The notes beneath the pieces are model-generated. The model made no database searches and was not told the DNA's origin. It saw nothing but the letters and a program-made list of their open reading frames with translations. A stretch of 64,000 nt of DNA from Candidatus Leucobacter sulfamidivorax (GTDB lineage Bacteria; Actinomycetota; Actinomycetes; Actinomycetales; Microbacteriaceae). Position numbers and translations under genes: made by a program. Each line of letters begins with the position of its first letter. Position 1 is the first letter of the stretch. Below are positions 1 through 19,655 of the stretch, piece after piece. The DNA lies in NCBI GenBank assembly GCA_016771945.1, contig QZLF01000004.1:248001-312000 (forward strand), read 5' to 3'.

Positions 1-1
1 C

Positions 2-718
2 GGGCACGGTGATCATGATCAGGACGAGGTGTTCCTGAGCGCCCGCTACTTCACCGTCACCGGCGTCTTCCAGTCCTACTCGGACCCGGACGCGCTCGCG
101 ACGGCGAGGGCCGCCCTCGACGTGATGCACGGCCGGCCCGGCTTCGAGGTGACCGTCACCGACGAAGCCGGGCCGCTCCGCTCGACAGCCAAGCTCGCTT
201 CCCGCATCGGATGGGACCGGAACCGGGCGCCTGGCTGCGCCTACTTCGAGTTCACCCTCAAGGCGGACGACCCGCGCCGGTACGGGCCCCTGCAGATCCT
301 CTCGACCGGGGCACCGACCCCGGGCGTCGGCATCGCAGACCCGGTACTGGACCCCGTCCAGGAGGGCGCAGCCGGGAACCTCGGCCGAGTCGAGCTCGTG
401 AACACCGGCTCCGCCCCGTCCGAGCCGCTCGTGCGGGTCGCCGGCGGATCCGACGAGGGCTTCGAGCTGCGCTGCATCGAGACCGCGGAGATCGTGCGTG
501 TCACCCGGCCGATCCCGGCCGGCTCCGTGATCGAGGTGCGCATGGGCGATGGCACGGTCTGGATCGACGGAGAGTCACCGCTCGCCGCCTCCTACATCCC
601 CGTCGCGGAGTGGATCAGCGTCGGCCCGGGCGAGACCTGCACCCTGCAGTTCACCCCGCTCGGAGCGCTCACGGGCACGCCGGCCATGAACGTGGAGTGG
701 GCGGTGGCAACGTGGTGA
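2..718 (+). CDS. Phage tail protein, distal-tail-like (5' truncated)
   Basis: The frame is open from the first bases of the window, so the true start lies upstream; a GTG at 29 is only internal. The visible 238 or so codons contain a tail-domain-like stretch (FTVTGVFQSY, then LDVMHGRPGFEVTVTDEAG, then RRYGPLQ), followed by a beta-rich carbohydrate-module-like half (VELVNTGSAPSEPLVRV). This layout is common in distal tail proteins of actinobacterial siphoviruses, which join the tail tube to the tip. The stop overlaps the next start by 4 bases (GTGA), so translation is probably coupled. The exact family is inferred from pattern, not from a search. Confidence 0.7.
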   Translation, partial: GHGDHDQDEVFLSARYFTVTGVFQSYSDPDALATARAALDVMHGRPGFEVTVTDEAGPLRSTAKLASRIGWDRNRAPGCAYFEFTLKADDPRRYGPLQILSTGAPTPGVGIADPVLDPVQEGAAGNLGRVELVNTGSAPSEPLVRVAGGSDEGFELRCIETAEIVRVTRPIPAGSVIEVRMGDGTVWIDGESPLAASYIPVAEWISVGPGETCTLQFTPLGALTGTPAMNVEWAVATW

Positions 719-1857
719 CGCGTGCGCAGGTGGCAGACATGGTCACCGGGGACCGCATCCAGACCCTCCCGACGTCGGAGGTGAGGTGGGAGCGGCGGAT
801 CCTCTCCCCGGAGCAGATGGACGTGAAGCTGACGCTCGCCCCGCGCGCGCACCAGCTGCTCGACCTGCGCAACTCGACCGTGGAGGCGAAGACCGCGCTC
901 GTCGTCTCCGACGGCGACGTGGTGCTCGGTGCGGGCCCGATCTGGGAGCGCGAGTACGACGACACCACCGGGCGCTGGTCGGGCACCGCGGAGGGCATCT
1001 GGGCGCTACTGGAGCACGCGCACGTGCTCCCGGAATCGGTGACGACACTGCCGCTGCTGGTCGCCTCCGGCGACGACGAGGGCGAACCGAACCCGGCGGT
1101 GGCGACGACCTTCACGGCGTCGACGTGGCCGGAGATCGTGCAGGGCCTCCTCGCGCAGCGCGCCGCCCGCCCCGGCGGCGCACTCCCGCTCGTGTTCGGC
1201 CCGGCCGGCACCGGCGCCCACGACAAGAGCTACGAGGCGTCCGCGTTCAAGACCATTGGGGAGGCGCTCACCGATCTCACCCGCCTTGTCGATGGGCCGG
1301 AGCTCGAGTTCACCCCGCAGATCGTCGACAACAAGCTCCGCTGGCTCGTGAGGGTCGGCGACGACGCACAGCCCGAGATCCAGTCCATCACCCGGCACCT
1401 GTTCGACTTCACCCCGCGGAAGCGGTCGGTGCGGGCGCTCAGGGTGCGCTCGTCCGGGCGGGGCCTCGCCTCCGAGATGTGGGGCACCGGGGGCCGGCAG
1501 GCCGCGAAGGCGCTCTTCTCTCGGGCGTGGTCGCCGCAGCTGATCGACGCCGGCTTCCCCCGCATGGAGGCGGTGTCCTCCTCGCACTCGACCGTGGTCG
1601 AGCAGGAGACCCTCGACCGGTACACGCTGCGCGATCTCGCGCAGGCGTCCGCCCCGGTGGAGTGGTGGTCGTGGGAGTTCCACGCCGACCGCCGGCCCCG
1701 CCTCACCGATGTGTCGGTCGGGGATCTCTGCACGGTGCGGCTCAAGGGCAACAGGTACCTCCCGGACGGGGAGTACGAGCGGCGGATCGTGGCGATGTCG
1801 GGGACGTCGAAGTCGAGGTGGGTGCGGGTGACGACGGATGAGGTGGTGACGTGGTAG
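715..1857 (+). CDS. Phage minor tail / baseplate protein
   Basis: About 380 aa. It starts at the GTG that overlaps the upstream stop; the same frame is open further upstream but only as an antiphase shadow. The N-terminal part (LPTSEVRWERRILSPEQMDV) and the repeated 'ALVVSDGDVVLGAGPIWER' region resemble tail proteins of actinophages that follow the distal tail gene (the Gp37-like family of rhodococcal phages is the closest I can name). It probably forms part of the tail tip. The stop overlaps the next gene start (1851) by 7 bases, which supports a tightly coupled tail operon. There is no signal peptide or membrane segment. Confidence 0.6.
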   Translation: MTRAQVADMVTGDRIQTLPTSEVRWERRILSPEQMDVKLTLAPRAHQLLDLRNSTVEAKTALVVSDGDVVLGAGPIWEREYDDTTGRWSGTAEGIWALLEHAHVLPESVTTLPLLVASGDDEGEPNPAVATTFTASTWPEIVQGLLAQRAARPGGALPLVFGPAGTGAHDKSYEASAFKTIGEALTDLTRLVDGPELEFTPQIVDNKLRWLVRVGDDAQPEIQSITRHLFDFTPRKRSVRALRVRSSGRGLASEMWGTGGRQAAKALFSRAWSPQLIDAGFPRMEAVSSSHSTVVEQETLDRYTLRDLAQASAPVEWWSWEFHADRRPRLTDVSVGDLCTVRLKGNRYLPDGEYERRIVAMSGTSKSRWVRVTTDEVVTW

Positions 1858-2612
1858 CGAGGATCCCCGAGGCGCAGGCGTTCGGGCGGATGCGCGCCGA
1901 TCGGGAGCGCACCGATCGGCGCGTCACCGACCTCGAGCGCACCGACGGCTCGCAGTACGCGCGGACGCTCGAGAAGATTAAGGCGCTCGTCGCCGGCCTC
2001 GACGCCACGGTGCAGAGCTACATCTCGCTCTACTCGTACACGAAGGCGCAGATCGATGCCCACACCTGGGCGGCCGGATCGATCTACGGGGTGCTCGCGC
2101 CCGGACAGGGCGGCACGGGCACCGCCAACGTCTACGACAACCCGCTCGTGGGTGGCAGCGCGCTCGCCGTGTACGTCACCTCCGACGGCGTGCTCAACAA
2201 GGGCGCGTCGAGTGCGCGGTGGAAGCAGGACATCACCGCGTGGGATGGCGACCCCGCCGTGCTGCTCGAGCTCGCGGTGCGCCGCTTCCGGTGGCGCGTC
2301 GAGGCCGCGGCCGCCGGCGAGCAGCAGGTCGACCTTGACAGGTACGCGGATGACGGCGGCCCCGAGGGGCCCGAGCCCGGGCCGGCTCCCTGGGACTTCG
2401 GCCTCATCGCCGAAGAGGTCCAGGAGCTCGGCGCAGACTGGCTCGTCCGCCTCGGCGAGGACGGCCTCCCCGAGGGCGTCCACTACCACCGGCTGCCGAT
2501 CGCGCTCCTCGCGCTGGTCCAGCAGCAACACCAGATCATCACCCGGCAGGGCAAAGCGCTCGCCGCATTCGAAGCGCGCCTCGCTGCGCTCGAGGAGAGG
2601 AGTACTCGATGA
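1851..2612 (+). CDS. Phage tail fibre with S74 intramolecular chaperone
   Basis: 253 aa, GTG start overlapping the previous gene. The N-terminus is highly charged and helical (trimeric coiled-coil-like, residues 10-60). A Gly-rich linker (VLAPGQGGTGTANVYD) typical of tail fibres follows. The C-terminus from about residue 125 has the hallmarks of the peptidase S74/endosialidase chaperone: ASSARWKQDI, FGLIAEEVQEL, then YHRLPIALLALVQQQHQII, ending in a helix. Family members trimerise the fibre and then cleave themselves off. The short body suggests a spike or an adaptor fibre. Confidence 0.8.
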   Translation: MVARIPEAQAFGRMRADRERTDRRVTDLERTDGSQYARTLEKIKALVAGLDATVQSYISLYSYTKAQIDAHTWAAGSIYGVLAPGQGGTGTANVYDNPLVGGSALAVYVTSDGVLNKGASSARWKQDITAWDGDPAVLLELAVRRFRWRVEAAAAGEQQVDLDRYADDGGPEGPEPGPAPWDFGLIAEEVQELGADWLVRLGEDGLPEGVHYHRLPIALLALVQQQHQIITRQGKALAAFEARLAALEERSTR

Positions 2613-3511
2613 CGCTCGGACACGGATTCCCCGGGCACAGCGCGCTCGCGACCTTCGCGGACGTGCGCCGGGATCTCGAGGGCGCCGTGGCGCGCAACGC
2701 CGCCGGCGTGATGCGCGCCGGCATCTTCCCGGCGCACTACGACCCGCTCGTGACCGGCCGGACCGACATGAAGGTCAACATCGCGGACTTCCGCGCGGTG
2801 CAGAACCGGGGCGGGGCGATCTTCCTCGCGAACGTCGGCACGGACGCATCGGTGCAGCTGGACGCGGCGCCGGCCGCGAACCGGCGCATCGATCTGATCT
2901 ACGTGACGCAGCGGTCGACCGCGCTCGGCGACGCCGCGTCGACGCCCGTATTCGGGGTGGTGAAGGGCACCGCCTCTGCGTCGCCGGTGGTGCCGGCACT
3001 GCCTGCCGCGGTGACGGATGCCATTCGCCTCGCGACGGTCGAGATCCCCGCCGGTGCCACGACGACGCTCTCGGCCGGCGTCGTGATCACGCAGGTGTAC
3101 CCGTACACGGCGATGGCCGGCGGCACCGTGGTTGTGAGAAACTCGGTGGAGCTGGCGGCGTGGACCCCAGCCGATAATGCTCGCGCTTTCAACCTCGCGG
3201 ATACTGGAGACTACGTTCGAGTCGGCGGTGCATGGGGGAAGAAATCCGAGCCGTTTCGGATGCTCCTCACCCCGACGATCACCGGCGGCGGCAACACCTC
3301 CGGCTGGTACTACGCCAACGACTCCAGCTACAACTTCCCCGGGGGCACCTTCTCCGTCGCGCCGCGCGTGAAGCTCACCCCACGCGGCACCGGGTTCATC
3401 GTCGCGCAGCTCGCGGCGATCACCGCCGCCGGCATCACCTACGGTGTCGCGCGCCTCGGTGCAGCGCCGGCAGCGAACACCCGTGTTGAGCTCGAGGCAT
3501 GGGTCGAATAG
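2609..3511 (+). CDS. Receptor-binding tail protein carrying C-terminal cassette 1
   Basis: 300 aa, ATG start overlapping the previous stop by 4 bases. Residues 1-190 form a constant part (HGFPGHSALATFADVRR, then a baseplate-adaptor-like IDLIYVTQRS region). After the junction motif NLADTGDYVRVGGAWG (residues 194-209) comes a beta-rich variable head of about 90 residues, ending in ELEAWVE. The junction codons lie in a 23-bp DNA repeat that recurs twice more nearby, each time followed by a different head. The protein ends at TAG 3509-3511, but the same reading frame stays open to 3961 and encodes cassette 2. The protein probably contacts the bacterial surface; the receptor is unknown. Confidence 0.7.
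   Translation: MTLGHGFPGHSALATFADVRRDLEGAVARNAAGVMRAGIFPAHYDPLVTGRTDMKVNIADFRAVQNRGGAIFLANVGTDASVQLDAAPAANRRIDLIYVTQRSTALGDAASTPVFGVVKGTASASPVVPALPAAVTDAIRLATVEIPAGATTTLSAGVVITQVYPYTAMAGGTVVVRNSVELAAWTPADNARAFNLADTGDYVRVGGAWGKKSEPFRMLLTPTITGGGNTSGWYYANDSSYNFPGGTFSVAPRVKLTPRGTGFIVAQLAAITAAGITYGVARLGAAPAANTRVELEAWVE
3197..3219 (+). repeat. Cassette junction repeat, copy 1 (expressed)
   Basis: 23 bp starting GCGGATACTGGAGA and ending CTACGTTCG, encoding ADTGDYVR. It differs from copy 3 at 2 positions and from copy 2 at 3 positions. It marks the switch from the constant to the variable part of the tail protein and is the proposed recombination site. Confidence 0.65.
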
Positions 3512-3961
3512 CCCCTCGCTGACAATGGAGACTACGTTCGACAGGCGGCCGCCTGGGCGCTTCCCGTGAGCGCCGGCGGGATCGTCGGCAGGCACCTCGC
3601 GGTGGGCACTGGAAGCGCAGCTGCGGGCGGGATTATCACCCAGCTGGACGTCTCAGGTCTGCGCCCCGGATCGAAGGTCCTCATCGAACAGTCCGCGGTC
3701 TCGTTGGCCCCTGCGGCGGCGGCGGGAATCGTGCAGCTCTATGGGATCTACACCACCGACGGCACCGCGCCGACCGCGGTCAACGGGACGAAGTTCCTGA
3801 ACTCGCGCGTGTACGCGCCGAGCTCCGGCGCGGTCGTCTCGGCGCCCGGCGGCGCTTTCCAGGTGACCGTCGGCGCGGCCGGCAGGGTGCGCGCGATCAC
3901 CTACTCCAATGAGCTCTGGTATCGGCCGGACATGACCGAGATGATCATGCGGCAGGGCTAG
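3512..3961 (+). CDS. Silent tail-protein C-terminal cassette 2
   Basis: Open frame in the same phase as the upstream tail gene, separated from it by one TAG. It begins with PLADNGDYVRQAAAWAL, a copy of the junction motif of the upstream protein, then a beta-rich head of about 130 residues ending MTEMIMRQG. The only start candidate is a GTG at 3566 with no Shine-Dalgarno sequence and lying after the junction motif, so independent expression is unlikely. I read it as a stored alternative head, usable after recombination at the repeat or by amber readthrough. A plain gene finder would call 3566-3961 a hypothetical protein. Confidence 0.6.
   Translation, partial: PLADNGDYVRQAAAWALPVSAGGIVGRHLAVGTGSAAAGGIITQLDVSGLRPGSKVLIEQSAVSLAPAAAAGIVQLYGIYTTDGTAPTAVNGTKFLNSRVYAPSSGAVVSAPGGAFQVTVGAAGRVRAITYSNELWYRPDMTEMIMRQG
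3518..3540 (+). repeat. Cassette junction repeat, copy 2
   Basis: Direct copy in front of silent cassette 2, encoding ADNGDYVR in the same codon phase. It shares the unbroken run TGGAGACTACGTTCGA with copy 1. Recombination with copy 1 would delete cassette 1 and its TAG. Confidence 0.65.
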
Positions 3962-4245
3962 GCGACCGCGAGCCAGGACGCCCAGATGTTTCGAACGATC
4001 CCGGCTCGGCCTACAAGCCTGAACCCCGATGCCGTGATCATCGAGACTCCGACAGAGATTGTGCCCGCCAGATCTCCCGACCCCGGAACCGCCGTGACGA
4101 TTGGTATCGTACGGAACGGAGTGGAGAAGACGACGTCGAATTGGTGGTCGGTATTCGCCGCTGCGCTCGCCTTGATCTGAGTCTCACCGCCCAGCCGAAC
4201 GGGGCCCCACCCGCCGGCACGGCGAACATATTCTCCAGTATCCGC
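3958..4245 (-). CDS. Silent inverted tail-protein C-terminal cassette 3
   Basis: On the minus strand the frame encodes SADTGEYVRRAGGWG, matching the junction motif of the upstream tail protein. It is followed by an H-type-lectin-like head: FDVVFSTPFRTIPIVTAV, then VGVSMITASGFRLVGRAG, ending WASWLAVA. It has no start codon with a ribosome site before the motif. Its TAG stop and the TAG of cassette 2 share the palindrome CTAG at 3958-3961, so the two heads lie exactly tail to tail. Inverting 3197-4245 would fuse this head in frame to the constant part of the tail protein. The function is inferred from the arrangement. Confidence 0.6.
   Translation of the reverse strand, partial: ADTGEYVRRAGGWGPVRLGGETQIKASAAANTDHQFDVVFSTPFRTIPIVTAVPGSGDLAGTISVGVSMITASGFRLVGRAGIVRNIWASWLAVA
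4223..4245 (-). repeat. Cassette junction repeat, copy 3 (inverted)
   Basis: Read on the minus strand it begins GCGGATACTGGAGA, identical to copy 1 for 14 bases, and ends ATATGTTCG. It encodes ADTGEYVR in the same phase. Being inverted relative to copy 1, recombination between them would flip the 3197-4245 segment. Confidence 0.65.
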
Positions 4246-4337
4246 AGAGCCGCCGCTGAGGCTTCGCCAAGGCGCGACACACGGCCGCTGGCCGGCCTCA
4301 TCATCCCGCACCCCGCGCATCCCGCGCAACCGTCACC

Positions 4338-4366
4338 TGAGCCCCGCCCCGTGCGGGGCTCACGCA
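4338..4366 (+). terminator. Strong hairpin terminator after tail module
   Basis: A perfect 10-bp stem (TGAGCCCCGC with GCGGGGCTCA) closes a 5-base loop and is followed by CGCATTTC. It separates the tail cassettes from the lysis genes. The U-tract is poor, so termination may be partial. Confidence 0.55.
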
Positions 4367-4384
4367 TTTCTGAGGAGGATTCCC

Positions 4385-4555
4385 ATGGCAACGAGTATCC
4401 ACGACGTCGAGGCCGAGGAGCGCGCCCTGATCGGTCGCACCCGCACCCCGGACGATCTCCCCGAGATCGTGAAGGCGGCGCTCGCCGCCGAAACCGGCCA
4501 ACGCTTCGATGCGGACGGCTTCGAAATCGCCGACGAGGTGGTCTCCGATGGCTGA
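4385..4555 (+). CDS. Small acidic phage protein before endolysin
   Basis: 56 aa with a strong ribosome site (GAGGAGG, 7 bases before ATG). The sequence begins MATSIHDVEAEERALIGRT and has a helical PDDLPEIVKAALAAE stretch. No motif is recognised. The stop overlaps the endolysin start by 8 bases, so it is the first gene of the lysis module and is probably translationally coupled. It could be a small structural or lysis accessory protein; the function is unknown. Confidence 0.55.
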   Translation: MATSIHDVEAEERALIGRTRTPDDLPEIVKAALAAETGQRFDADGFEIADEVVSDG

Positions 4556-5342
4556 CCCGCAGTGGTGGCCCGTCGACGACGTCCGCATCACCGGCGAATT
4601 CGGGGCTGATGCCGAGTGGTACATGCAGAACGTGGGCCAGAAGGGCCACAACGGCATCGACATCGGTGGCGAGTGGGGCACCCCGCTCTACGCCATCGAC
4701 GACGCGGTGATCGTGCAGGAGGGGTGGAACATCCCGTGGTCCGGGGTGGCCGGCGGGATCGCGCTGATCGCCCGCTCGACCTGGGGGTTCTTCGGTCTCG
4801 CGCACTGCTCCGACATCCGGGTCAGCGTCGGCGACGAGGTGCGCCGCGGATACCGGCTCGGGTCAATGGGCAACACCGGCCTCGCTCTCGGCGTCCACGT
4901 CCACTCAGAGACGCTGCCGCTGAGCCCCAACTTCGGCAACGGCTTCTCCGGCCGAGTGAACCCGTACCGACTCCTCAATCTTCAGCCCCGCAACGGCCAG
5001 CCCGCTCCCCGCAAGACTCGCAAGAAAGGCGCCACCATGAGCACTCTGTTCCACCGCATCGACAACGGAATCTACACCTTCGCGCTTGCCGGCGAGGCCC
5101 CCGGCACCTCGGCCAACTGGCTCGAGACGAAGGACGGCGACTTCGCCAACAGGCTCGCCGAGACGCACGGCAACTCGAAGCTGCTCTCCGGAGGTACGTG
5201 GGACGCCTGGAAGGCTCGCTATCTCGAGCCGGTCAAGATCGCCACCACAATCGACGCCTCCCTCGACCAGAAGGGCGTCGAGGACTCCGCGAGGAAGGGC
5301 GCGATCGATGGGATCAAGACGCTCACGATGAAGGCCGTCTAG
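4548..5342 (+). CDS. M23 family endolysin (LytM-type peptidase)
   Basis: 264 aa. Residues 1-145 form an M23 zinc peptidase. The first-motif region HNGIDIGGEWGTPLYA supplies the HxxxD ligands, and GVHVHSE supplies the HxH motif; GLAHCSDIRVSVGDEV is also typical. Such enzymes cut peptidoglycan peptide bridges. A basic linker (APRKTRKKGA) leads to a C-terminal domain from about residue 164 (LFHRIDNGIYTFALAGEAPG), probably cell-wall binding. An in-frame ATG at 5038 with AAAGG upstream could give the C-terminal domain alone. There is no signal peptide, so release would depend on the holin-like proteins downstream. Confidence 0.85.
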   Translation: MADPQWWPVDDVRITGEFGADAEWYMQNVGQKGHNGIDIGGEWGTPLYAIDDAVIVQEGWNIPWSGVAGGIALIARSTWGFFGLAHCSDIRVSVGDEVRRGYRLGSMGNTGLALGVHVHSETLPLSPNFGNGFSGRVNPYRLLNLQPRNGQPAPRKTRKKGATMSTLFHRIDNGIYTFALAGEAPGTSANWLETKDGDFANRLAETHGNSKLLSGGTWDAWKARYLEPVKIATTIDASLDQKGVEDSARKGAIDGIKTLTMKAV

Positions 5343-5352
5343 GGCGGCCACC

Positions 5353-5772
5353 ATGCGTGTGCTCAGACGCTTCGCCCGCTGCTGGTGGGCGACCATCCCC
5401 GAGCCGCGGCTCGTGTCGGCCGGCGTCGCGATCGCCTACGCGCTCGCCGTCGTCGGTGGGGCCCGGATCCTGCTCGCCCCGCCGGCGCACACACCACCCG
5501 ACGTGCAGGCCCTCGTGGTGACGATCGCGTGGCTGCTCATCCTCGGCGGGCTCCTCGCGGCCGGCGCCGGCTGGGCGGACGCGTGGGCGCTCGAGCGGCC
5601 CGGGCTCGCCCTGCTGATCATGGCAACGATCGCGCACACGATCGTGCTCGCCGTCGCCGAGCACCGCGGCGAGTCCCGCTCGGCCGACCTCGTCATGACG
5701 TCTTTCGGGCTGCTCCTCTTCGCGATTCGCCTCGGCATGATCTGGCGGTACTCCCGCAGACCCAGGGGGTAG
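5353..5772 (+). CDS. Phage membrane protein, lysis module
   Basis: 139 aa with about four hydrophobic segments: residues 22-42 (SAGVAIAYALAVVGGARILL), 51-72, 83-102 and 114-130 (MTSFGLLLFAIRLGMIW). The ends are basic. It follows the endolysin by 10 bases, the usual place for a holin or lysis-associated membrane protein. The family is not recognised. It may modulate hole formation. Confidence 0.6.
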   Translation: MRVLRRFARCWWATIPEPRLVSAGVAIAYALAVVGGARILLAPPAHTPPDVQALVVTIAWLLILGGLLAAGAGWADAWALERPGLALLIMATIAHTIVLAVAEHRGESRSADLVMTSFGLLLFAIRLGMIWRYSRRPRG

Positions 5773-5775
5773 AGC

Positions 5776-6084
5776 ATGACCGGCGCCGAGCTGCTCCAGT
5801 CCCTGCTCCTGGTCGGCGGCGGCGCGGTCTCGCTCCGCATCATCGACATGATCCGCGACGCACTCTCCGCGCCCGGCCGGCGCCGACGCCGCGAGGTCGA
5901 CCGCCTCGCGACGGACCTCCGTGAGCGTGACGAGCAGCTGCGCGAGGCCCGCACCGAGCGCGACACCTGGCGCACGAAGTACCGGCGCGTCATCGAGTCG
6001 TATCACGAGCTGCGCGTGTGGGTCATCCGCACCGGCTTGCACGACCCGGCAGACGTGCCCGACATCGACGATGAGAGGGGGTGA
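5776..6084 (+). CDS. Single-span coiled-coil phage protein
   Basis: 102 aa. A short N-terminal hydrophobic segment (LLQSLLLVGGGAVSLRIIDM) is followed by a long charged helix rich in Arg and Glu (residues 35-75) and an acidic tail. One membrane anchor plus a coiled coil resembles lysis accessory or spanin-like proteins of Gram-positive phages, but no specific family can be named. It lies between two membrane proteins with almost no spacing (3 bases before it, start/stop contact after it). Confidence 0.5.
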   Translation: MTGAELLQSLLLVGGGAVSLRIIDMIRDALSAPGRRRRREVDRLATDLRERDEQLREARTERDTWRTKYRRVIESYHELRVWVIRTGLHDPADVPDIDDERG

Positions 6085-6086
6085 CT

Positions 6087-6443
6087 ATGACCAACCCCGA
6101 AACCCCCGCCCAGGGCTCGCAGGCGCCCGCTGAGGCGCCGAAGAGCACCCAGAGCATCCGGACGTTCATCGCGGCCGCGGTCGGCGTGCTGATCGTCCGC
6201 CTCGTCGGCGCGGTGCCGGCGCTCGCCGACGCGCTCGCGTGGACCGATCAGCTCTTCGCCGACATGGGCTACGCGGGCCTGTCCGCGCTCGCGCTCGTCC
6301 AGGCCGCGGTGATCGCCGGCGTGATCCTGCTCTACCAGAAGCTGGCCCAGTGGCTCGGCGACCGCTGGCCGGCCGCCGAGCGGTGGATGCTCGGCTCCGA
6401 CGCCCGCCCGCACTACATCGCGCGATACGGAAGGAACCCGTGA
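6087..6443 (+). CDS. Holin-like phage protein
   Basis: About 118 aa. I chose the ATG at 6087 because AGGGGG sits 5 bases upstream; a GTG at 6081 overlapping the previous stop is the alternative. An Ala/Pro/Gln-rich N-terminus precedes two hydrophobic helices (FIAAAVGVLIVRLVGAVPAL and LSALALVQAAVIAGVILLY) and a short basic C-terminal tail, the layout of a two-helix holin. Position after the endolysin supports this. Holins make the membrane lesion that lets endolysin reach the wall. Confidence 0.65.
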   Translation: MTNPETPAQGSQAPAEAPKSTQSIRTFIAAAVGVLIVRLVGAVPALADALAWTDQLFADMGYAGLSALALVQAAVIAGVILLYQKLAQWLGDRWPAAERWMLGSDARPHYIARYGRNP

Positions 6444-6634
6444 TGAACCCGATCATGAAGTACTTCGCGTTCGAGCACCTCCGCGAGGGGCCGTTGCGAG
6501 ACACCTCGGCGAAGTTCGCGGCGCTCGCCGCCGACGTCGACGAGACCCTGCCGAACGGCCCCGAGAAGTCGACCGCGCTGCGGAAGCTGCTCGAGGCCAA
6601 GGACGCCGCGGTGCGAGCCGCCCTCGACCTGTAA
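6443..6634 (+). CDS. Acb2/Tad1-type hairpin protein, putative cyclic-nucleotide sponge
   Basis: 63 aa; the ATG overlaps the upstream stop by one base. It is a two-helix protein: FEHLREGPLRDTSAKFAAL, then LPNGPEKSTALRKLLEAKDA and AVRAA. This pattern (hydrophobic helix, LPxxxEKxxALRKLLEAKDxxVRA) matches small phage proteins annotated with the Acb2/Tad1 hairpin domain. Characterised members bind immune second messengers and block CBASS or Thoeris defence. Messenger binding by this protein is inferred. It is the last gene before a terminator, where phages often keep accessory genes. Confidence 0.55.
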   Translation: MNPIMKYFAFEHLREGPLRDTSAKFAALAADVDETLPNGPEKSTALRKLLEAKDAAVRAALDL

Positions 6635-6648
6635 CCCGATCCTGAAAC

Positions 6649-6697
6649 GCGCCCTCGCGTTCGAGCTCCACTGGGAGCCGAGCGCGAGGGCGCTTTC
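6649..6697. terminator. Terminator between lysis module and accessory genes
   Basis: A perfect 11-bp stem (GCGCCCTCGCG with CGCGAGGGCGC) encloses 23 bases and is followed by TTTCT. It ends the plus-strand lysis transcript and could also serve the minus-strand small gene that converges on it. Confidence 0.65.
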
Positions 6698-6702
6698 TGC
6701 GT

Positions 6703-6858
6703 TCAGGGCTGCACCGGATCCCGCGGCGACGGCAGCAGCAACGCCCGGCACCCCGAGCACTCCCAGCACCACCCCGCCGAACTCATCGGGTGCAGCCCGC
6801 AGTCGGGGCACGACGGGAGCCGGGGGTCGCACCGCCCGTCACAGATGAGGTGAGCCAT
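6703..6858 (-). CDS. Small zinc-ribbon-like phage protein
   Basis: 51 aa if started at the ATG at 6858 (MAHLICDGRCDPRLPSCPDC). Cysteines occur as C-x3-C, C-x2-C and C-x2-C (SCPDCGLH, WCWECSGC), suggesting one or two zinc knuckles. It lies downstream of the SRAP gene on the same strand. No family is recognised and the role is unknown. The start is uncertain because a GGAG sits too close to the ATG. Confidence 0.4.
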   Translation of the reverse strand: MAHLICDGRCDPRLPSCPDCGLHPMSSAGWCWECSGCRALLLPSPRDPVQP

Positions 6859-6957
6859 GCTCCGAGTCTGCGCGACCTCCCAGCTGCTCGCGGCCGCGGC
6901 CACGCATCTGTGGAGAGGCCGGAGGATGCCCAGGGTCCGGGCGCCTGTGGACGGCGA

Positions 6958-7644
6958 TTAGAAGAGCGTCGCCTCGGCTGCCGGCTTCTCCTCGGGCTCG
7001 GCCGGCGGCTCGACGACCGTCATCGCGCGCGAGATCTCCTCGGAGACGAGCTGCGCCCGTTCGACGAGCTCGGCGTCTCCGGGCCGGTCGGGGTCGAGCC
7101 ATTCGTCGTGCAGCTCGCGCGGCAGGACGAGCGGCATCCGGGACTCTCCCCGGGACGAGACCACGGTCGACGCCTCGCCGACGCCGTGCCGGGTCACCAT
7201 CGAGTAGCTCAGACCCTCGCCGCCGTCGTCGGCCGCGCGCGGCGCGACGATCGCCGCGATCCCGAACAGCTGCCCGTCAGGCAGTGCCCACCGCTTCCCG
7301 CCCTCGGAGTACCAGTCGGCCGGGATGAGCGCACGGTGTTGGAACGGCTTCCTCCACTTCGAGACCAGCGCGTCGTCGCGGGAGTTGAACGCGGAGAACT
7401 TGGCCGGCTCGCCGCCTACGTGCAGCCACCACCAGGCGAGCTCGAGCGAGCGAGCGCCGCCGCCTTCGCCGAGGATGATCGGGTTGAGGTTCACGCCGCG
7501 CTTCTGCCGCCGGGTGGTGTTCGCCTTGCCGAGCCACTGCCGAGCCCACTCCTCGAGCAGCACCCGATTGCCCTGCTCGCTCATCGGCTCGAGGTCGAGC
7601 GGCAGCGGCCCGCGGCCGCCCCCGAGTCCATACCCTGCACACAT
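6958..7644 (-). CDS. SRAP-domain protein (SOS response-associated, YedK/HMCES-like)
   Basis: 228 aa. I start it at MCAGYG because SRAP proteins need Cys immediately after the initiator Met; the frame is open upstream but this Cys2 is diagnostic. Other family marks: FSAFNSRDD, the RALIPADWYSEG segment (usual form RCLVPADGFYEW), and SRMPLVLP near the C-terminus. Characterised SRAP proteins form a covalent link to abasic sites in single-stranded DNA and shield them. The residue two before the RMP arginine is Glu, where the canonical enzyme has His. A LexA-like box lies 45 bases upstream, so SOS induction is likely. Confidence 0.8.
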   Translation of the reverse strand: MCAGYGLGGGRGPLPLDLEPMSEQGNRVLLEEWARQWLGKANTTRRQKRGVNLNPIILGEGGGARSLELAWWWLHVGGEPAKFSAFNSRDDALVSKWRKPFQHRALIPADWYSEGGKRWALPDGQLFGIAAIVAPRAADDGGEGLSYSMVTRHGVGEASTVVSSRGESRMPLVLPRELHDEWLDPDRPGDAELVERAQLVSEEISRAMTVVEPPAEPEEKPAAEATLF

Positions 7645-7688
7645 GCCGCCAGCGTACTCATTTGCGCCCCGAGCTGCGAGGCCTATAC

Positions 7689-7704
7689 TCGAACATACTT
7701 TCGA
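7689..7704. promoter_or_regulatory. LexA (SOS) box between divergent genes
   Basis: TCGAACATACTTTCGA matches the actinobacterial LexA operator TCGAAC-N4-GTTCGA with one mismatch. It lies between the SRAP gene (minus strand) and the gene at 7719 (plus strand), beside a TATACT hexamer at about 7683-7688, so bound LexA would block both promoters. Confidence 0.65.
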
Positions 7705-7718
7705 ATGGAGGCGGGGAG

Positions 7719-7982
7719 ATGGGCGAGCGGGTGGAGGTCTGGTTGGGCGAGCAGGGGCGGCCTGCGCGCCTCGTGCACGGTGGGGCGCGGTGGCGGGTGA
7801 TCGACCGGCCGACACCGCTGACGGAGGAGCCGGACTGGATCCCGCCGGAGATCACGCATCCGCCTGCGCAGCTGGTGGGGTGGCGCTGCACCGTGCGCCG
7901 GGAGATCGACCGTGAGGTGATCGTGGTCGACCTCCGCACCGGGGACGACGGCTGGGTCGTCGCACGCACCTACGAGGGCTGA
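7719..7982 (+). CDS. DUF6504-like small protein, SOS-linked
   Basis: 87 aa. The ATG is preceded by GGAGGCGGGGAG. The sequence VEVWLGEQGRPARLVHGGARWRV, with a later WRCTVRREIDREVIVVDLR, resembles DUF6504-type proteins. From memory, these often occur near Y-family polymerase/ImuAB mutasome genes in actinobacteria. It probably responds to DNA damage through the LexA box 15 bases upstream. It is divergent from the SRAP gene and followed 4 bases later by another small gene. The assignment is by pattern only. Confidence 0.45.
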   Translation: MGERVEVWLGEQGRPARLVHGGARWRVIDRPTPLTEEPDWIPPEITHPPAQLVGWRCTVRREIDREVIVVDLRTGDDGWVVARTYEG

Positions 7983-7986
7983 GCTC

Positions 7987-8346
7987 GTGGGCGGTCGACG
8001 GAAAGACGGCTCGACGCCGCCGAGCGTGCTGCGGGACGAGGAGCGCATGATGGAGGCGTGGCATCGGCGCCCGGAGCCGATCTCGCTGTCGGCGGCGGAG
8101 GTGCGAGCGACGGGCTATCCTCACGAGGGTGACGGCACTCGGGTGCGGGTGCTCATGCCGCATCTGGTCTCGTACACGGAGCACATCGAGCTCGAGGGCG
8201 TGGTCGAGGGATGGACGCCGCGCGCGGTGCGCGTGCGAGCGACGCATCCGGACGGACGCACGGTCACGGCCTGGGTTTGGGCGAGCGCCGTGAAGCGGCT
8301 CGACAAACCACCTTCGGAGCCGACCTCCGGGCGGCCAAGGAGATGA
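7987..8346 (+). CDS. Hypothetical phage protein
   Basis: 119 aa from GTG at 7987, following the previous gene by 4 bases. Central part MMEAWHRRPEPISLSAAEVR, then a beta-rich region (EGVVEGWTPRAVRVRATHPD) ending ASAVKRLDKPP. No domain is recognised. It probably shares the SOS-controlled transcript of the gene before it. It is the last plus-strand gene before the tRNA and integrase, which are on the other strand. Confidence 0.45.
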   Translation: MGGRRKDGSTPPSVLRDEERMMEAWHRRPEPISLSAAEVRATGYPHEGDGTRVRVLMPHLVSYTEHIELEGVVEGWTPRAVRVRATHPDGRTVTAWVWASAVKRLDKPPSEPTSGRPRR

Positions 8347-8354
8347 ATTCGGCG

Positions 8355-8431
8355 TGGCGCCCCCAGCAGGATTCGAACCTGCGACCGCGGGATTAGAAGG
8401 CCCGTGCTCTATCCAGCTGAGCTATGGAGGC
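8355..8431 (-). tRNA. tRNA-Arg (anticodon TCT), phage-borne
   Basis: A complete cloverleaf can be folded: acceptor GCCTCCA/TGGGGGC (one G-U pair), D-loop AGCTCAGCTGGATAGAGC, anticodon loop CTTCTAA (TCT), T-arm GCAGG-TTCGAAT-CCTGC, discriminator G and an encoded CCA. Base 31/39 of the anticodon stem is a C-U mismatch. It reads rare AGA codons. It lies inside the prophage just beyond the integrase stop, and its 3' 43 bases match the attR fragment at 39 positions. Confidence 0.9.
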
Positions 8432-8446
8432 AACACACCGAGGGTA

Positions 8447-9373
8447 CTACGCCGCGAGCCGGCCACCCCCCACAGGGCTCTCGTGAGGGGCCTCGACTGA
8501 GGCGGATGGCGCGGGCGCTCGCCGCCGCCGTGGAGTGCGCTGCGGGACCTCGATGATGGGCAGTAGCTCTTGGCCGGCCGCGATCTGGTCGTGTCGGATG
8601 GCGAGGTAGCGGGGGAGTGTCTGCATGTCGGAGTGGCGGAGACCGGCGGCAATCACGGGTGCGTCCACGCCGGCCTGGCTGAGCTCGGTTGCGTACCAGG
8701 CGCGCAAGTTGTGGGGGCGGTGTCCGAGGATTCCGGCCCGCTTCATAGCCTGGCTGATGACCGTCGTCACTGTCCCGCCGGTGACATGGGTGCCGGGCTT
8801 GTAGGGGGAGGGGAACCAGAACCCGCTGCGAGGGTACTTCTGGGCTTCGGCCCAGATGAGCGGGTGGATCGGGCGCCAGACCTCCTTGCCGCCCTTTCCG
8901 TCGACCGAGAGAATGCGTCGGCGGCGCCAGTCGATCGCCTCGCCGGCGATCGCGGCGATCTCGGAGGCGCGGAATCCTTGGTAGGCGTAGAGCAACACGT
9001 ACATGCGGGTTCGCGAATAGATGCCACTGTTGATGAGCAGCTGGAGGTCCTCGGTCGTGACGGGGTTGGCTTCCTTCTGCGTGACCCGCACCTTGGGCAG
9101 CCGCACGGCGGGGTTGTCGAGTCGATAGCCCTCGTCTTGAACCCAGGTCCAGAAGAGGTGATAGAGGCTCTTGTGGTGGCTGCGGGTCGAGTTCTCGATG
9201 CCGTCGCGGCCGACGTCGAGCAGCAGGTCGTGGCGGGTCATCGTGAGAATACTCTTGCCCGTCCGGCGCAGAACTGCGCGCATCGCGAACGCTTGATTGC
9301 GCAGTGTGCGCGGCCGGTAGCCGGATGCGCGAAGCTCTGCCAGCCAGTGCTCGAGGATGGCGTCGTCGTCCAT
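8447..9373 (-). CDS. Tyrosine-family phage integrase
   Basis: 308 aa from the ATG at 9373, which has GGAG six bases upstream; an upstream ATG at 9472 overlapping the preceding gene (ATGA) would add 33 residues. Residues 1-100 are the core-binding domain. Catalytic residues are visible: Arg in YQGFRASEIAAI, Lys in GKGGKEVW, His-Arg in HNLRAWYATEL, His in GLRHSDMQ and Tyr in LPRYLAI. The C-terminal tail is Pro/Arg-rich. The enzyme would recombine phage attP with a host tRNA; the tRNA-derived attR lies about 520 bases upstream of the start. Confidence 0.88.
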   Translation of the reverse strand: MDDDAILEHWLAELRASGYRPRTLRNQAFAMRAVLRRTGKSILTMTRHDLLLDVGRDGIENSTRSHHKSLYHLFWTWVQDEGYRLDNPAVRLPKVRVTQKEANPVTTEDLQLLINSGIYSRTRMYVLLYAYQGFRASEIAAIAGEAIDWRRRRILSVDGKGGKEVWRPIHPLIWAEAQKYPRSGFWFPSPYKPGTHVTGGTVTTVISQAMKRAGILGHRPHNLRAWYATELSQAGVDAPVIAAGLRHSDMQTLPRYLAIRHDQIAAGQELLPIIEVPQRTPRRRRAPAPSASVEAPHESPVGGGRLAA

Positions 9374-9468
9374 TTCATCTCCGTTCTCTTGCACTCCTCG
9401 TTGAGTGAAGTCGGAGACTAGCGAGAGATGCCTTTGCGCGTTTCTCGGTAGGATCGGTGGTTGGGTGC

Positions 9469-9834
9469 TCATCGCTTCGCGAGTTCGAACCAGACCGCGT
9501 CGGCCTGGTCTCGACGGGCACTGTGCCGATCGACGGCGGACCAGTCGCCGCGTTCGAGCGCTCGCCGGGCGGCGAGATCGCAGACGTCGTGGAGAGCGCT
9601 CAGACGCCGCATCCGAAGGTCGCGGGCGTCCTGCGCGCACTCGTAGCAGTCTTCGCCGCTGCATTCTTCGGTGCAGCCGCCGTAGCAGTAGATGCAGGTG
9701 CTGAGGATCCCGTCGAGGTCATGCTCGAGACCATCACCTCCGCAGTATGGGCACCAGTGGTGTCCGACGGGGAGCTCGGTGGGCGGGTCGCCGGCGATGA
9801 ATCGACCGTCGCCGCAGTTGATGAGCGTGCTCAT
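9469..9834 (-). CDS. Cys-rich zinc-binding phage protein
   Basis: 121 aa. The N-terminal half contains WCPYCGG, CIYCYGG, CTEECSGEDCYEC, a pattern like DnaJ-type CxxCxG zinc folds; the C-terminal half is helical and charged (DLAARRALERGDWSAVDRH). The stop overlaps an in-frame upstream start of the integrase by 4 bases, so it is likely co-transcribed with int. It could be a recombination directionality or regulatory factor by position, but there is no direct evidence. Confidence 0.5.
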   Translation of the reverse strand: MSTLINCGDGRFIAGDPPTELPVGHHWCPYCGGDGLEHDLDGILSTCIYCYGGCTEECSGEDCYECAQDARDLRMRRLSALHDVCDLAARRALERGDWSAVDRHSARRDQADAVWFELAKR

Positions 9835-9896
9835 GCTCCCACCGCCTCGAGCTCACGACCGGTGAAGAGATCGATAATCTTGGCGTCTGAACCATC

Positions 9897-9940
9897 CGCC
9901 TTGTAATCCCGATGTCGCAGGTTCGAGTCCTGCTGGGGGC
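9897..9940 (+). other. attR: 3' half of a host tRNA
   Basis: The sequence from the anticodon loop (CTTGTAA) through TCCCG, the T-arm GCAGG-TTCGAGT-CCTGC and acceptor strand TGGGGGC is a tRNA 3' half. The 5' half is absent and the bases before it do not pair with it. Read literally the anticodon is TGT (Thr), but the anticodon could lie at the phage-host junction; the rest is close to tRNA-Arg(TCT). The intact tRNA should lie at the left end of the prophage. Confidence 0.75.
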
Positions 9941-9982
9941 ACTCGAGCGGCGAGCCTCGCGCGCAGCTTTCCCGGAACAGAA

Positions 9983-11557: not shown

Positions 11558-12784
11558 ATGGGCTTCATCAAGGCATTCGCGGGTGCGATCGGCGGCATGT
11601 TCGCCGATCAGTGGGTCGACTACCTCCTGCCGCCGGCAGGGCTCGCCCCGACCGCGGCGATCTTCCCCGCTGTGCCGAAGGGCCAGAACGCGGGCCGCGG
11701 CTCGAACACCAAGGGCTCCGAGAACATCATCTCCGACGGCTCGCTCATCGTCGTGCCCGAGGGCTACGCGCTGATGACGTTCCACAACGGCGAGCTCACC
11801 GGCCTCGTGGCCGAGCCGGGCGGCTACACCTTCACGACGACGGACCCGCAGGCGCAGTCGATCTTCACCGGCGGCGGCTTCCTGGCCTCCACCGTGATGC
11901 AGTCGTGGGAGCGCTTCAAGTTCGGCGGCCAGCCCGGCTCGCAGCACCTCGCCTTCTACGTCAACCTGAAGGAGATCCCGAACAACCGCTTCGGCACGCA
12001 GAGCGAGATCTACTGGGACGACGCCTTCCTCGGCACCCAGGTCGGCGCGATCACGCGCGGCACCTACACGATCCGCATCGCGGATCCGGTGCTCTTCCTC
12101 AAGCAGTTCGTGCCGCTGGCCTACTACAGCGCCGACGCGAGGATCTTCGACTTCACCGACCTCGACAACGACGCGGCCGCCCAGCTCTTCAACGAGGTGG
12201 TCTCGTCGCTCGCCCCGGCCTTCTCGCACTACACGAACGATCCCTCCAAGGGCAATCGCATGGCGAACATCCAGGGCGACTCGCTGGGCTTCGCCCAGTC
12301 GCTCTCGGCGGCCGTGGAGCAGGGCTACCAGTGGGCGAGCCAGCGCGGCCTCGTCATCGTGAGCGTCGCGATCCAGGCGATCGAGTACGACGAGGACACC
12401 CGGGCCCTGCTCAGCGACGTCAAGAAGGCGGACGCGCTCGGCGGTGCGCGCGGCGCCTCGTTCCTGCAGCAGTCCGTCGCCCGCGGCTTCGAGGCCGCCG
12501 GCGAGGGCGGCAGCGGCAACATGGCGATGATGGGCCTGGGCGTCGGCATGACCGGCCAGGCGCTCAACTTCCAGCAGCAGCAGACCCAGGCCGCGCCGCC
12601 TCCCGCGGCCCCGCCCGCCGCGGCACCGGCGGCCGCTGCGGCCGGCGTCGCCGCCGAGGCGGCCCCGGCGCAGGGCGCCGAGGATCCGGTCGCGAAGCTC
12701 GCCCAGTACAAGCAGATGCTGGACCAGGGCCTCATCACCGCCGAGGACTTCGAGTCGGCGAAGAAGAAGATCCTGGGTCTCTGA
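11558..12784 (+). CDS. SPFH-domain protein (YdjI/virion-core-like) with C-terminal SHOCT
   Basis: 408 aa; the second ATG (11558) is chosen because AAGGG is 7 bases upstream of it. The start MGFIKAFAGAIGGMFADQW is characteristic of the Bacillus YdjI family. The SPFH region (about 70-290) includes LIVVPEGYALMTFHNGELTG and YYSADARIFDF. An Ala/Pro/Gln-rich linker precedes a short C-terminal SHOCT-like helix pair (KLAQYKQMLDQGLITAEDF). No signal peptide is present. These proteins assemble at membranes, and Bacillus relatives belong to a stress operon. It forms an operon with the next two genes. Confidence 0.8.
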   Translation: MGFIKAFAGAIGGMFADQWVDYLLPPAGLAPTAAIFPAVPKGQNAGRGSNTKGSENIISDGSLIVVPEGYALMTFHNGELTGLVAEPGGYTFTTTDPQAQSIFTGGGFLASTVMQSWERFKFGGQPGSQHLAFYVNLKEIPNNRFGTQSEIYWDDAFLGTQVGAITRGTYTIRIADPVLFLKQFVPLAYYSADARIFDFTDLDNDAAAQLFNEVVSSLAPAFSHYTNDPSKGNRMANIQGDSLGFAQSLSAAVEQGYQWASQRGLVIVSVAIQAIEYDEDTRALLSDVKKADALGGARGASFLQQSVARGFEAAGEGGSGNMAMMGLGVGMTGQALNFQQQQTQAAPPPAAPPAAAPAAAAAGVAAEAAPAQGAEDPVAKLAQYKQMLDQGLITAEDFESAKKKILGL

Positions 12785-12789
12785 CGAAG

Positions 12790-19163: not shown

Positions 19164-19655
19164 ATGCGCATCCACGTCGCCACCGACCACGCGGGGCTCG
19201 AGTTCAGCCGCGTCCTGCAGGAGCATCTCGCCGAGCAGGGCCACGAGGTCGTCGACCACGGCCCCGTCGAGTACGACGCGCTCGACGACTACCCCTCATT
19301 CTGCATCAACGCGGCGATCGGCGTCGCCCGCGACCTGCGCGACGGCGTTCCGGCGTTCGGGGTCGTCTTCGGCGGCTCGGGCAACGGCGAGCAGATGGCC
19401 GCGAACAAGGTCGAGGGGATCCGCGCCGCGCTCGTCTGGAACGAGTCGACCGCCGAGCTCGCGCGCGAGCACAACGACGCGAACGTGATCTCCATCGGCG
19501 CGCGCCAGCACCCGGTCGAGGACGCGATCCGCTTCATCGACCTGTTCATCGCGACGCCCTTCTCGGGCGACGAGCGGCACGTGCGCCGCATCGGCCAGCT
19601 CGGCGAGTACGAGCGCACGGGCGCGATCGCGGGCAAGCGGGTCGACGAGTTCTGA
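19164..19655 (+). CDS. rpiB: Ribose-5-phosphate isomerase B
   Basis: 163 aa. It begins MRIHVATDHAGLEF (RpiB Asp-His substrate loop) and has GVVFGGSGNGEQMAANKVEG (phosphate and catalytic Ser/Gly loop) and HNDANVISIGAR. It interconverts ribulose-5-P and ribose-5-P in the pentose phosphate pathway, in the cytosol. It is followed one base later by the nei gene, so they are probably co-transcribed. Confidence 0.95.
   Translation: MRIHVATDHAGLEFSRVLQEHLAEQGHEVVDHGPVEYDALDDYPSFCINAAIGVARDLRDGVPAFGVVFGGSGNGEQMAANKVEGIRAALVWNESTAELAREHNDANVISIGARQHPVEDAIRFIDLFIATPFSGDERHVRRIGQLGEYERTGAIAGKRVDEF

What the first reader, a model, noticed from the sequence alone, without database searches (positions are those of the whole stretch)
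3197..4245. Invertible tail-fibre head module with three interchangeable C-terminal cassettes
Three imperfect 23-bp repeats (3197-3219 and 3518-3540 on the plus strand, 4223-4245 on the minus strand; 20-21 of 23 bases shared with copy 1) each encode AD(T/N)G(D/E)YVR in the same codon phase. Each is followed by a different C-terminal head. Only copy 1 is joined to the constant N-terminal part of the 2609 gene. Copy 3 is inverted and its head ends tail to tail with cassette 2. Recombination 1x3 would flip the segment and express head 3; recombination 1x2 would delete cassette 1 and express head 2. This resembles the Mu, P1 and p15B host-range inversion systems, but in an actinobacterial prophage. 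No invertase gene is visible in the window.
Basis: partly seen in the sequence, partly recalled or inferred. Interest (0 to 1): 0.85.

Follow-up and report, generated by a model that had tools for sequence, protein, structure and literature searches.

The report
Invertible phage tail-head cassettes without invertase
A prophage in an actinobacterium carries one tail-tip gene stem and three spare heads, at least one of them lectin-like, behind matching short DNA switch sites but no dedicated switching enzyme beside them, and related Bifidobacterium phages whose copy of this switch has flipped carry switch sites that look like bacterial XerC/XerD (dif) sites.

Summary
Three copies of a 24-bp repeat (3197-3220+, 3518-3541+, 4222-4245-) lie in one codon phase. 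Copy 1 is in a phrog_3398 tail gene (2609-3511), copy 2 follows its stop codon, copy 3 faces it. Each precedes a different head; head 3 matches the H-type lectin domain. The plan is that of the published Rin shufflon of bifidoprophages (PMC6109161), not of Mu/P1/p15B, but without a flanking invertase or rix site. Homologous genes with the same switch at the same linker occur in one other genome of the host's family (G316) and in six Bifidobacterium phage records (BP677P1 and relatives). There it has, most simply, flipped: BA720P3/BA746P1 carry the segment inverted, ending at the sites. In the records tested (BP677P1, BA720P3, and the partial BP742P1) no integrase- or resolvase-family gene was found, and the 25-bp BP repeats match the core dif-arm pattern at 15 of 15 positions. 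I read the family as head switching by Xer-type recombinases in trans. For the window this is inferred: its sites match dif no better than their peptide requires, no reads were available, and a fossil is possible. The prophage's only tyrosine recombinase (8447-9664-) is also Xer-like.

The parts
1851..2612 (+). Tail protein with a Peptidase_S74 chaperone-like domain, directly upstream (overlaps the RBP start)
   Evidence: PF13884 E 2e-5; phrog_1330 tail E 6e-8
2609..3196 (+). Constant N-terminal part (Rc) of the receptor-binding / minor tail protein
   Evidence: phrog_3398 E 4.9e-33 and phrog_35449 minor tail E 4.8e-10; 40-41% identity to BP677P1
3197..3220 (+). Crossover-site copy 1, GCGGATAC-TGGAGA-CTACGTTCGA, encodes ADTGDYVR, inside the gene
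3221..3511 (+). Head 1, the one now joined to Rc; no domain recognised
   Evidence: Pfam none at E<=1; phrog_34656 (unknown function) E 0.0013
3518..3541 (+). Crossover-site copy 2, GCTGACAA-TGGAGA-CTACGTTCGA, 6 bases after the stop of head 1, same orientation as copy 1
3542..3961 (+). Head 2, silent (no constant part and no start codon between the stop of head 1 and the site); G+C by codon position 0.65/0.56/0.86
   Evidence: no Pfam match over cut-off
3958..4221 (-). Head 3, silent, H-type lectin domain; tail to tail with head 2; weaker codon pattern 0.63/0.58/0.69
   Evidence: PF09458 E 1.5e-5, 25.5 bits, cut-off 24
4222..4245 (-). Crossover-site copy 3, GCGGATAC-TGGAGA-ATATGTTCGC, inverted to copy 1
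8447..9664 (-). The only PF00589 tyrosine recombinase gene of the prophage; Xer-like core (ORF residues 106-361) and little room for an arm-binding domain if translation starts at MSTQPP (about 9472, inferred by eye); integrase and candidate invertase
   Evidence: PF00589 E 1.1e-14; XerA model E 6.6e-21, matches all below the models' cut-offs; sole match in the prophage

Best explanation
A Rin-like receptor-binding-protein switch that lacks its own flanking invertase. One constant stem gene (Rc) can be joined to any of three heads by site-specific recombination at a ~24-28-bp site embedded in the linker codons AD(T/N)G(D/E)YVR. Copy 1 x copy 3 would flip 1,049 bp and put the lectin head on the stem; after that flip copy 2 is inverted to the stem site, so a second flip could bring head 2; copy 1 x copy 2 would delete 321 bp in frame. 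The strand exchange is most likely made in the 6-bp centre TGGAGA by a Xer-type tyrosine recombinase acting in trans: in the Bifidobacterium relatives the host XerC/XerD (their sites are dif-like and no recombinase gene was found in the tested records), in the window either the host's XerC/XerD or the prophage's own Xer-like integrase. Shown: module, copies, heads, homologous modules, an inversion difference between Bifidobacterium phage clades, no recombinase hit in three records. Inferred: that the window module still recombines, and which enzyme does it.
For: Three copies, one phase, exact junctions. Head 3 matches a lectin domain. Same gene family (phrog_3398) with the same arrangement at the same linker in G316 (26-nt inverted repeat, 25/26, second head tail to tail) and in six Bifidobacterium phage records (perfect 25-bp inverted repeat). 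BA720P3/BA746P1 carry the BP segment on the opposite strand, BA720P3's joined head is the homologue of the silent BP head (54% over 119 aa), and remnants of the other head and of the second site follow. BP677P1, BA720P3 and the partial record BP742P1: 0 PF00589 and 0 PF00239 matches; 10 of BP677P1's 46 annotated proteins scanned with Pfam showed no site-specific recombinase. BP sites match CCGATAA-N6-TTATGTCA at 15/15, P 0.00046 given peptide and codon usage, and 16-17 of all 22 arm positions of the F. alni dif. G316's stem copy 12/15, P 0.020 with its own codons. The F. alni dif is a computational prediction in the literature; the window's own genome has one such site, reversed control 0. In the window all copy 1-2 differences lie left and all copy 1-3 differences right of the 6 bases that the BP alignment gives as the dif centre (P 0.009, post hoc). 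Each copy is a rare-codon outlier: rank 156, 111 and 49 of 9,448.
Against: The window sites match the dif pattern at only 9, 9 and 10 of 15, not more than synonymous codons would give (P 0.86, 1.0, 0.40; with the own-genome dif 0.78, 0.78, 0.25). Nucleotide identity among copies is not above that expected from peptide plus codon usage. G316's second copy matches only 10/15. No read data, no second strain. Among 35 homologous loci scanned, a repeat at the linker was found in four: window, L020, L180 and L212, the last judged chance. Heads 2 and 3 found no convincing relatives. The Bifidobacterium dif itself was not obtained. Two of three host Xer candidates scanned match XerC/XerD models only below cut-off, the third not at 1e-20; the best PF00589 gene (C1:1177222) was not scanned.
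Confidence: 0.6

Rival explanations
1. A fossil switch: the module once recombined, but its sites have drifted and head 1 is now fixed, as seems to have happened in BA720P3/BA746P1 where the old head and the second site have decayed.
For: The window copies are imperfect (21/24) whereas BP sites are perfect over 25 bp; window sites are not dif-like beyond their peptide; no flanking invertase; decay is seen in the BA relatives.
Against: All three centres are identical, the heads are open with no internal stop, and head 3 keeps a domain match just over its cut-off; arm mismatches are tolerated by many tyrosine recombinases (general knowledge).
Confidence: 0.25
2. No switch at all: heads were captured by ordinary module exchange at a conserved linker, and the repeats are only the conserved linker codons.
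For: Codon-conditioned identity test not significant; one homologue without a second head has the same linker motif (L181 LADSGDYVR).
Against: 9 of the 10 homologues without a module whose linker aligned lack the ADxGDYV motif; rare-codon islands in each copy; inverted tail-to-tail order and a site just after the stop codon, as in Rin; the inverted segment in BA versus BP.
Confidence: 0.1
3. The prophage's own Xer-like integrase (8447-9664) alone is the invertase and host XerC/XerD play no part in the window (a sub-case of the best explanation, so the odds overlap).
For: It is the only PF00589 gene of the prophage, Xer-like and apparently without an arm-binding domain (inference), like Rin itself. 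G316 also has a XerC-like recombinase gene about 7.3 kb from its module on the same contig.
Against: The putative attachment core in the split tRNA shares no obvious sequence with the repeats (read by eye); no recombinase gene was found in the BP and BA records tested.
Confidence: 0.3
4. A serine invertase or resolvase encoded elsewhere in the genome acts in trans.
For: Six PF00239 matches in the genome; three in ORFs of 192-230 aa, two of them on the 22.6-kb contig C7.
Against: None lies in the prophage; the site has a 6-bp invariant centre and is homologous in position to dif-like sites of BP phages, whereas serine invertase sites have a 2-bp centre (recalled).
Confidence: 0.05

Closest known systems
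Rin shufflon of bifidoprophages Bb423phi1, Bl157phi1, Bl30698phi1 (Mavrich et al. 2018, PMC6109161; passages and section 8 read)
   Same: Constant N-terminal RBP part, several dissimilar C-terminal heads, one site in the gene, a second direct site just after its 3' end, others inverted; short heads (about 95-147 aa here, 95-100 there)
   Different: Rin has a dedicated armless tyrosine invertase gene flanking the heads and an 11-bp rix TTCCCTAACCC; neither was found here. Homology of this Rc to the Rin Rc was not tested.
Second bifidophage inversion locus, 689b-1 / Bb423phi2 (same paper, section 8 read)
   Same: About 500-bp inversion without a flanking recombinase; a trans-acting invertase was proposed by those authors
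   Different: Two gene segments of unknown function and an 8-bp site CAGGGTTA; section 8 mentions no dif likeness
Rin with H-type lectin heads in Eggerthella lenta clade 1 prophages (PMC8778435, passages read)
   Same: Small genes often with H-type lectin domains in a Rin-like arrangement
   Different: Has a tyrosine recombinase directly beside them
dif/XerCD sites and phages that integrate through them (PMC3025954, passages read)
   Same: 28-bp site with a 6-bp centre; BP sites carry the core of both arms
   Different: The uses described in those passages are dimer resolution and phage integration, not inversion of a tail gene
Mu Gin, P1 Cin, p15B Min (recalled; named in PMC6109161)
   Same: Tail-fibre heads changed by inversion
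   Different: Serine invertase; encoded beside the segment, 26-bp sites with 2-bp core and enhancer (recalled); no serine recombinase in this prophage

Membership tests
Rin shufflon | Constant RBP stem followed by several dissimilar heads, site in gene plus direct site after the gene plus inverted site | tested here: met
   against the description
Rin shufflon | Flanking dedicated armless tyrosine invertase (rin) | tested here: not met
   Only PF00589 match in the prophage is 8447-9664, 4.2 kb from the module, beside a putative attachment site
Rin shufflon | rix site TTCCCTAACCC | tested here: not met
   0 matches at up to 1 mismatch in 64 kb
Rin shufflon | Inversion seen in reads or between close genomes | not testable with these tools
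   One assembly only for the window; for relatives an inversion between BA and BP phages is seen
Mu/P1/p15B serine inversion systems | Adjacent serine invertase gene | tested here: not met
   6 PF00239 matches in the genome, none in the prophage
dif/XerCD site, Bifidobacterium phage copies | Core of both conserved arms, CCGATAA-N6-TTATGTCA | tested here: met
   15/15 at both repeats of BP677P1, P 0.00046 given peptide; 16-17 of all 22 arm positions of the F. alni dif
dif/XerCD site, window copies | Core of both conserved arms, CCGATAA-N6-TTATGTCA | tested here: not met
   9, 9 and 10 of 15; P 0.86, 1.0, 0.40
dif/XerCD site, window copies | Identical 6-bp centre between partner sites | tested here: met
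   TGGAGA in 3 of 3; differences partition around it, P 0.009 post hoc
dif/XerCD site | Binding and recombination by XerC and XerD | not testable with these tools
   needs an experiment
Phage protein family phrog_3398 | Profile match over the stem | tested here: met
   window E 4.9e-33, BP677P1 E 2e-35, G316 E 2.7e-32

The most novel reading that the evidence does not exclude
Tailed phages of actinobacteria have placed dif-like sites inside the coding linker of their receptor-binding protein so that the host's chromosome-dimer resolvase XerC/XerD flips the heads. The linker peptide ADNCDYVR of the Bifidobacterium phages would then itself be the translation of a dif-like site, the phage needs no invertase gene, and the window and G316 modules are drifted or recombinase-switched branches of the same invention.
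Probability: 0.3. Interest if true: 0.85.

Novelty: new variant of a known kind. Interest (0 to 1): 0.62.

Why it matters
Phage tail switches are mostly described with a dedicated invertase next to the switched segment. Here one gene family carries such a switch in three lineages, with no adjacent invertase found in the window or in the Bifidobacterium records tested, and in one lineage the sites look like a chromosomal dif site. If right, host dimer resolution could set which receptors a phage can use. It also offers an answer to a question left open in 2018, what flips actinophage segments that have no invertase beside them, and the answer can be tested by PCR in xer mutants.

Tried and rejected
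Serine invertase: PF00239 searched in the genome, six matches, none in the prophage. rix sites: none. Head relatives: tblastn of heads 2 and 3 against 50,697 phage records, no match; head 2 matched 2 of 398 genomes, its own and one at E 5.5e-4 whose locus was not read; head 3 in viral contigs, one 37-residue match to a long protein that looks like a pectate-lyase-type spike by eye, judged chance. BP site in viral contigs: 0. Window site pattern: 2 stretches without a partner repeat, one in frame in an ATPase-like ORF by eye. Megablast of window 1-8400 against phages: no match. L212 linker repeat (21/22): partner lies in no head-like frame, judged chance. One search also listed weaker repeats (score 15-17) 444-600 bases past the junction in the window, L180, L215 and L236, taken as chance. 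AlphaFold of heads 2 and 3 from single sequences: mean pLDDT 37 and 46, not used; PDB sequence searches gave nothing usable. Nucleotide identity given peptide and codon usage: not significant. In one search the linker coordinates of L182 and L183 were off, so only one search tests those two; there L181 had one out-of-register 17/22 match. In one search the G316 and L181 sites were tested with the window prophage's codon usage (G316 P 0.012); one search repeats G316 with its own codons, 2,218 from eight ORFs picked by eye (P 0.020; 0.076 against the window genome's dif form).

Literature: nine searches, of which I saw listings with the openings of abstracts. None listed describes XerCD- or dif-driven inversion of a phage tail gene; the library holds open-licence papers only and some lists were cut, so this is weak evidence of novelty. 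PMC6109161 was read in passages and section 8; PMC8778435, PMC3025954, PMC11652169 and PMC8987985 in passages.
Full report
Observation. The window is contig 4, 248001-312000, of a 3.84-Mb genome. The gene at 2609-3511 encodes a 300-aa tail protein whose residues 15-243 match phrog_3398 (E 4.9e-33). Three 24-bp copies (3197-3220+, 3518-3541+, 4222-4245-) are the only ones in the window at up to 3 mismatches of their joint consensus and, at 18 or more of 24 bases, in the prophage. 0 of 60 dinucleotide shuffles of 2609-4400 held any 20/23 pair. Copy 1 is inside the gene, copy 2 starts 6 bases after the stop codon of head 1, copy 3 is inverted; heads 2 and 3 share the stop sequence CTAG. By BLASTP the heads resemble each other only in the first 13-22 residues, apart from a 7-residue match at E 0.6-0.8. 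Head 3 matches the H-type lectin domain (E 1.5e-5, just over the Pfam cut-off); heads 1 and 2 have no recognised domain. Codon-position G+C is coding-like for heads 1 and 2 (third position 0.86) and weaker for head 3 (0.69).

DNA or protein conservation? Given the peptides and the codon usage of the prophage, nucleotide identity among the copies is not surprising (P 0.13 and 0.17). That speaks against a naive reading of '20-21 of 23'. Two other facts favour a DNA site. Each copy is a rare-codon outlier: rank 156, 111 and 49 among 9,448 eight-codon windows (the background holds some wrong-frame ORFs, and codons around copy 1 also look AT-rich by eye). And the three differences between copies 1 and 2 all lie left, the three between copies 1 and 3 all right, of the invariant TGGAGA (P 0.009 for a separation with six or more bases between, chosen after seeing the data). 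That is what exchange within a 6-bp centre would leave behind.

Surroundings. The prophage seems to run from about C4:219.2 kb to about 257.9 kb (window about 9.9 kb): half a tRNA-Arg gene with a repressor-like ORF beside it on the left, a tRNA 3' half beyond the recombinase on the right (boundaries and the repressor are read by eye). It holds one PF00589 gene, 8447-9664, and no PF00239 gene. That recombinase matches Xer models below their cut-offs; the first 64 or so residues of the ORF look like out-of-frame sequence, which would leave little room for an arm-binding domain (inference).

Relatives. The whole protein matched 5 of 54 genomes of the genus and 140 of 50,697 phage records, best eight Bifidobacterium phages at 40-42% identity; the stem matched 14 of 398 genomes of the family and a stem alignment 16 of 396 of the order. 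The own genome is counted in the three genome figures. I scanned 38 loci, some of them near-duplicates, for inverted repeats near the stem-head junction; 3 gave no stem match, leaving 35. At the linker a repeat was found in the window (score 17), L020 = BP677P1 (25), L180 = G316 (23) and L212 (19). L212's partner is in no head-like frame, so it is counted as chance; that also shows the window's repeat pair would not convince by score alone. G316 has a stem with head 1 (L180 13165-14373-) and a second head (about 12559-13152+) tail to tail, each behind GNGDYVWSG, with a 26-nt repeat at 25/26. Of 10 homologues without a module whose linker aligned, 9 lack the ADxGDYV motif; L181 has it (LADSGDYVR) but no partner in register.

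Inversion in the family. Six Bifidobacterium pseudocatenulatum phage records (BP677P1, P2, P3, P4, P8, BP742P1) hold a perfect 25-bp inverted repeat at offsets 592-616 and 1298-1322 of the gene, encoding VADNCDYVR at the window's linker. In B. adolescentis phages BA720P3 and BA746P1 the segment lies on the opposite strand, the head joined to the stem of BA720P3 is homologous to the silent BP head (54% over 119 aa), and remnants of the other head and of the second site follow. The simplest account is an inversion at these sites since their common ancestor. The orientation goes with the host species, six records against two, but these are two clades, not eight independent events.

Which enzyme? 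Four records were searched for recombinases: BP677P1, BP742P1 (a partial record), BA720P3 and Microbacterium phage Isperia; 0 of 4 have a PF00589 and 0 of 4 a PF00239 match. Pfam scans of 10 of the 46 annotated BP677P1 proteins gave no site-specific recombinase; one has a sub-cut-off YqaJ (exonuclease-type) match. The other four BP records and BA746P1 were not searched. The BP repeat reads GCCGATAA-TTGCGA-TTATGTCAGAA. The computationally predicted dif of Frankia alni is CACGCCGATAA-TGCACA-TTATGTCAAGT. BP matches the core arm pattern CCGATAA-N6-TTATGTCA at 15/15 in both repeats and all 22 arm positions of F. alni at 16 and 17; synonymous recoding of the same peptide reaches 15/15 with P 0.00046, or 14/15 of the window genome's dif form with P 0.003. 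BA: 12/15, P 0.008, not independent. G316: 12/15 at the stem copy, P 0.020 with its own codons, and 10/15 at the second copy. The window's own genome has exactly one site within two mismatches of the pattern and none for the reversed control. In 198 genomes of the phylum, 20 have an exact match to YGATAA-N6-TTATGTCA, one each, and 178 none; the reversed control gave two matches. So the BP sites are probably Xer sites, and the host the likely source of the enzyme; the dif of the Bifidobacterium hosts was not obtained. For the window the case is weaker: 9, 9 and 10 of 15, no better than chance given the peptide (P 0.86, 1.0, 0.40), and 13, 14 and 13 of 22 arm positions of its own genome's dif. 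Its switch may use drifted Xer sites, its own Xer-like recombinase, or be dead.

Mechanism proposed for the window. Site 1 x site 3 would invert 1,049 bp and express the lectin head; a further inversion at site 2, then in inverted order, would express head 2; site 1 x site 2 would delete head 1 in frame (321 bp). Confidence: module and past recombination about 0.85; still active about 0.6; host XerC/XerD rather than the prophage recombinase about even.

Comparison. The arrangement is that of Rin, including a direct site right after the gene, without rin and rix. The 2018 authors described a second bifidophage inversion locus lacking a recombinase and suggested one in trans. What is added here is the dif likeness of the BP sites, the absence of recombinase hits in three phage records, and the presence of the module in the window and in G316. 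I file the window as a new variant of the RBP-shufflon kind, not as a member of Rin.

Noticed in passing
window 8355-8431 and about 9890-9945; L008 about 19205-19260 (C4:219.2 kb): The prophage appears to split a host tRNA-Arg gene in its anticodon region (5' half at C4:219.2 kb, 3' half near window 9.9 kb), while a complete tRNA-Arg(tct) gene in the opposite orientation lies inside the prophage next to the integrase, perhaps a replacement.
   Followed up: partly
window 1851-2612: Tail protein just upstream of the switch carries a Peptidase_S74 (intramolecular chaperone) domain.
   Followed up: no
L181 5890-6498 (G137): Stem homologue with linker LADSGDYVR encoded by CCGATAGTGGAGATTACGTGC, same centre TGGAGA as the window, but no second head in register within 4 kb; a possible locked or ancestral state.
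   Followed up: partly
G000:C7 (22.6 kb, L011): Small contig with two small serine recombinase genes, perhaps a plasmid or transposon.
   Followed up: no
G000:C1:1366278-1366298 (L059): Likely chromosomal dif of this genome, CTGATAATCTATATTATGTCA, a single match.
   Followed up: partly
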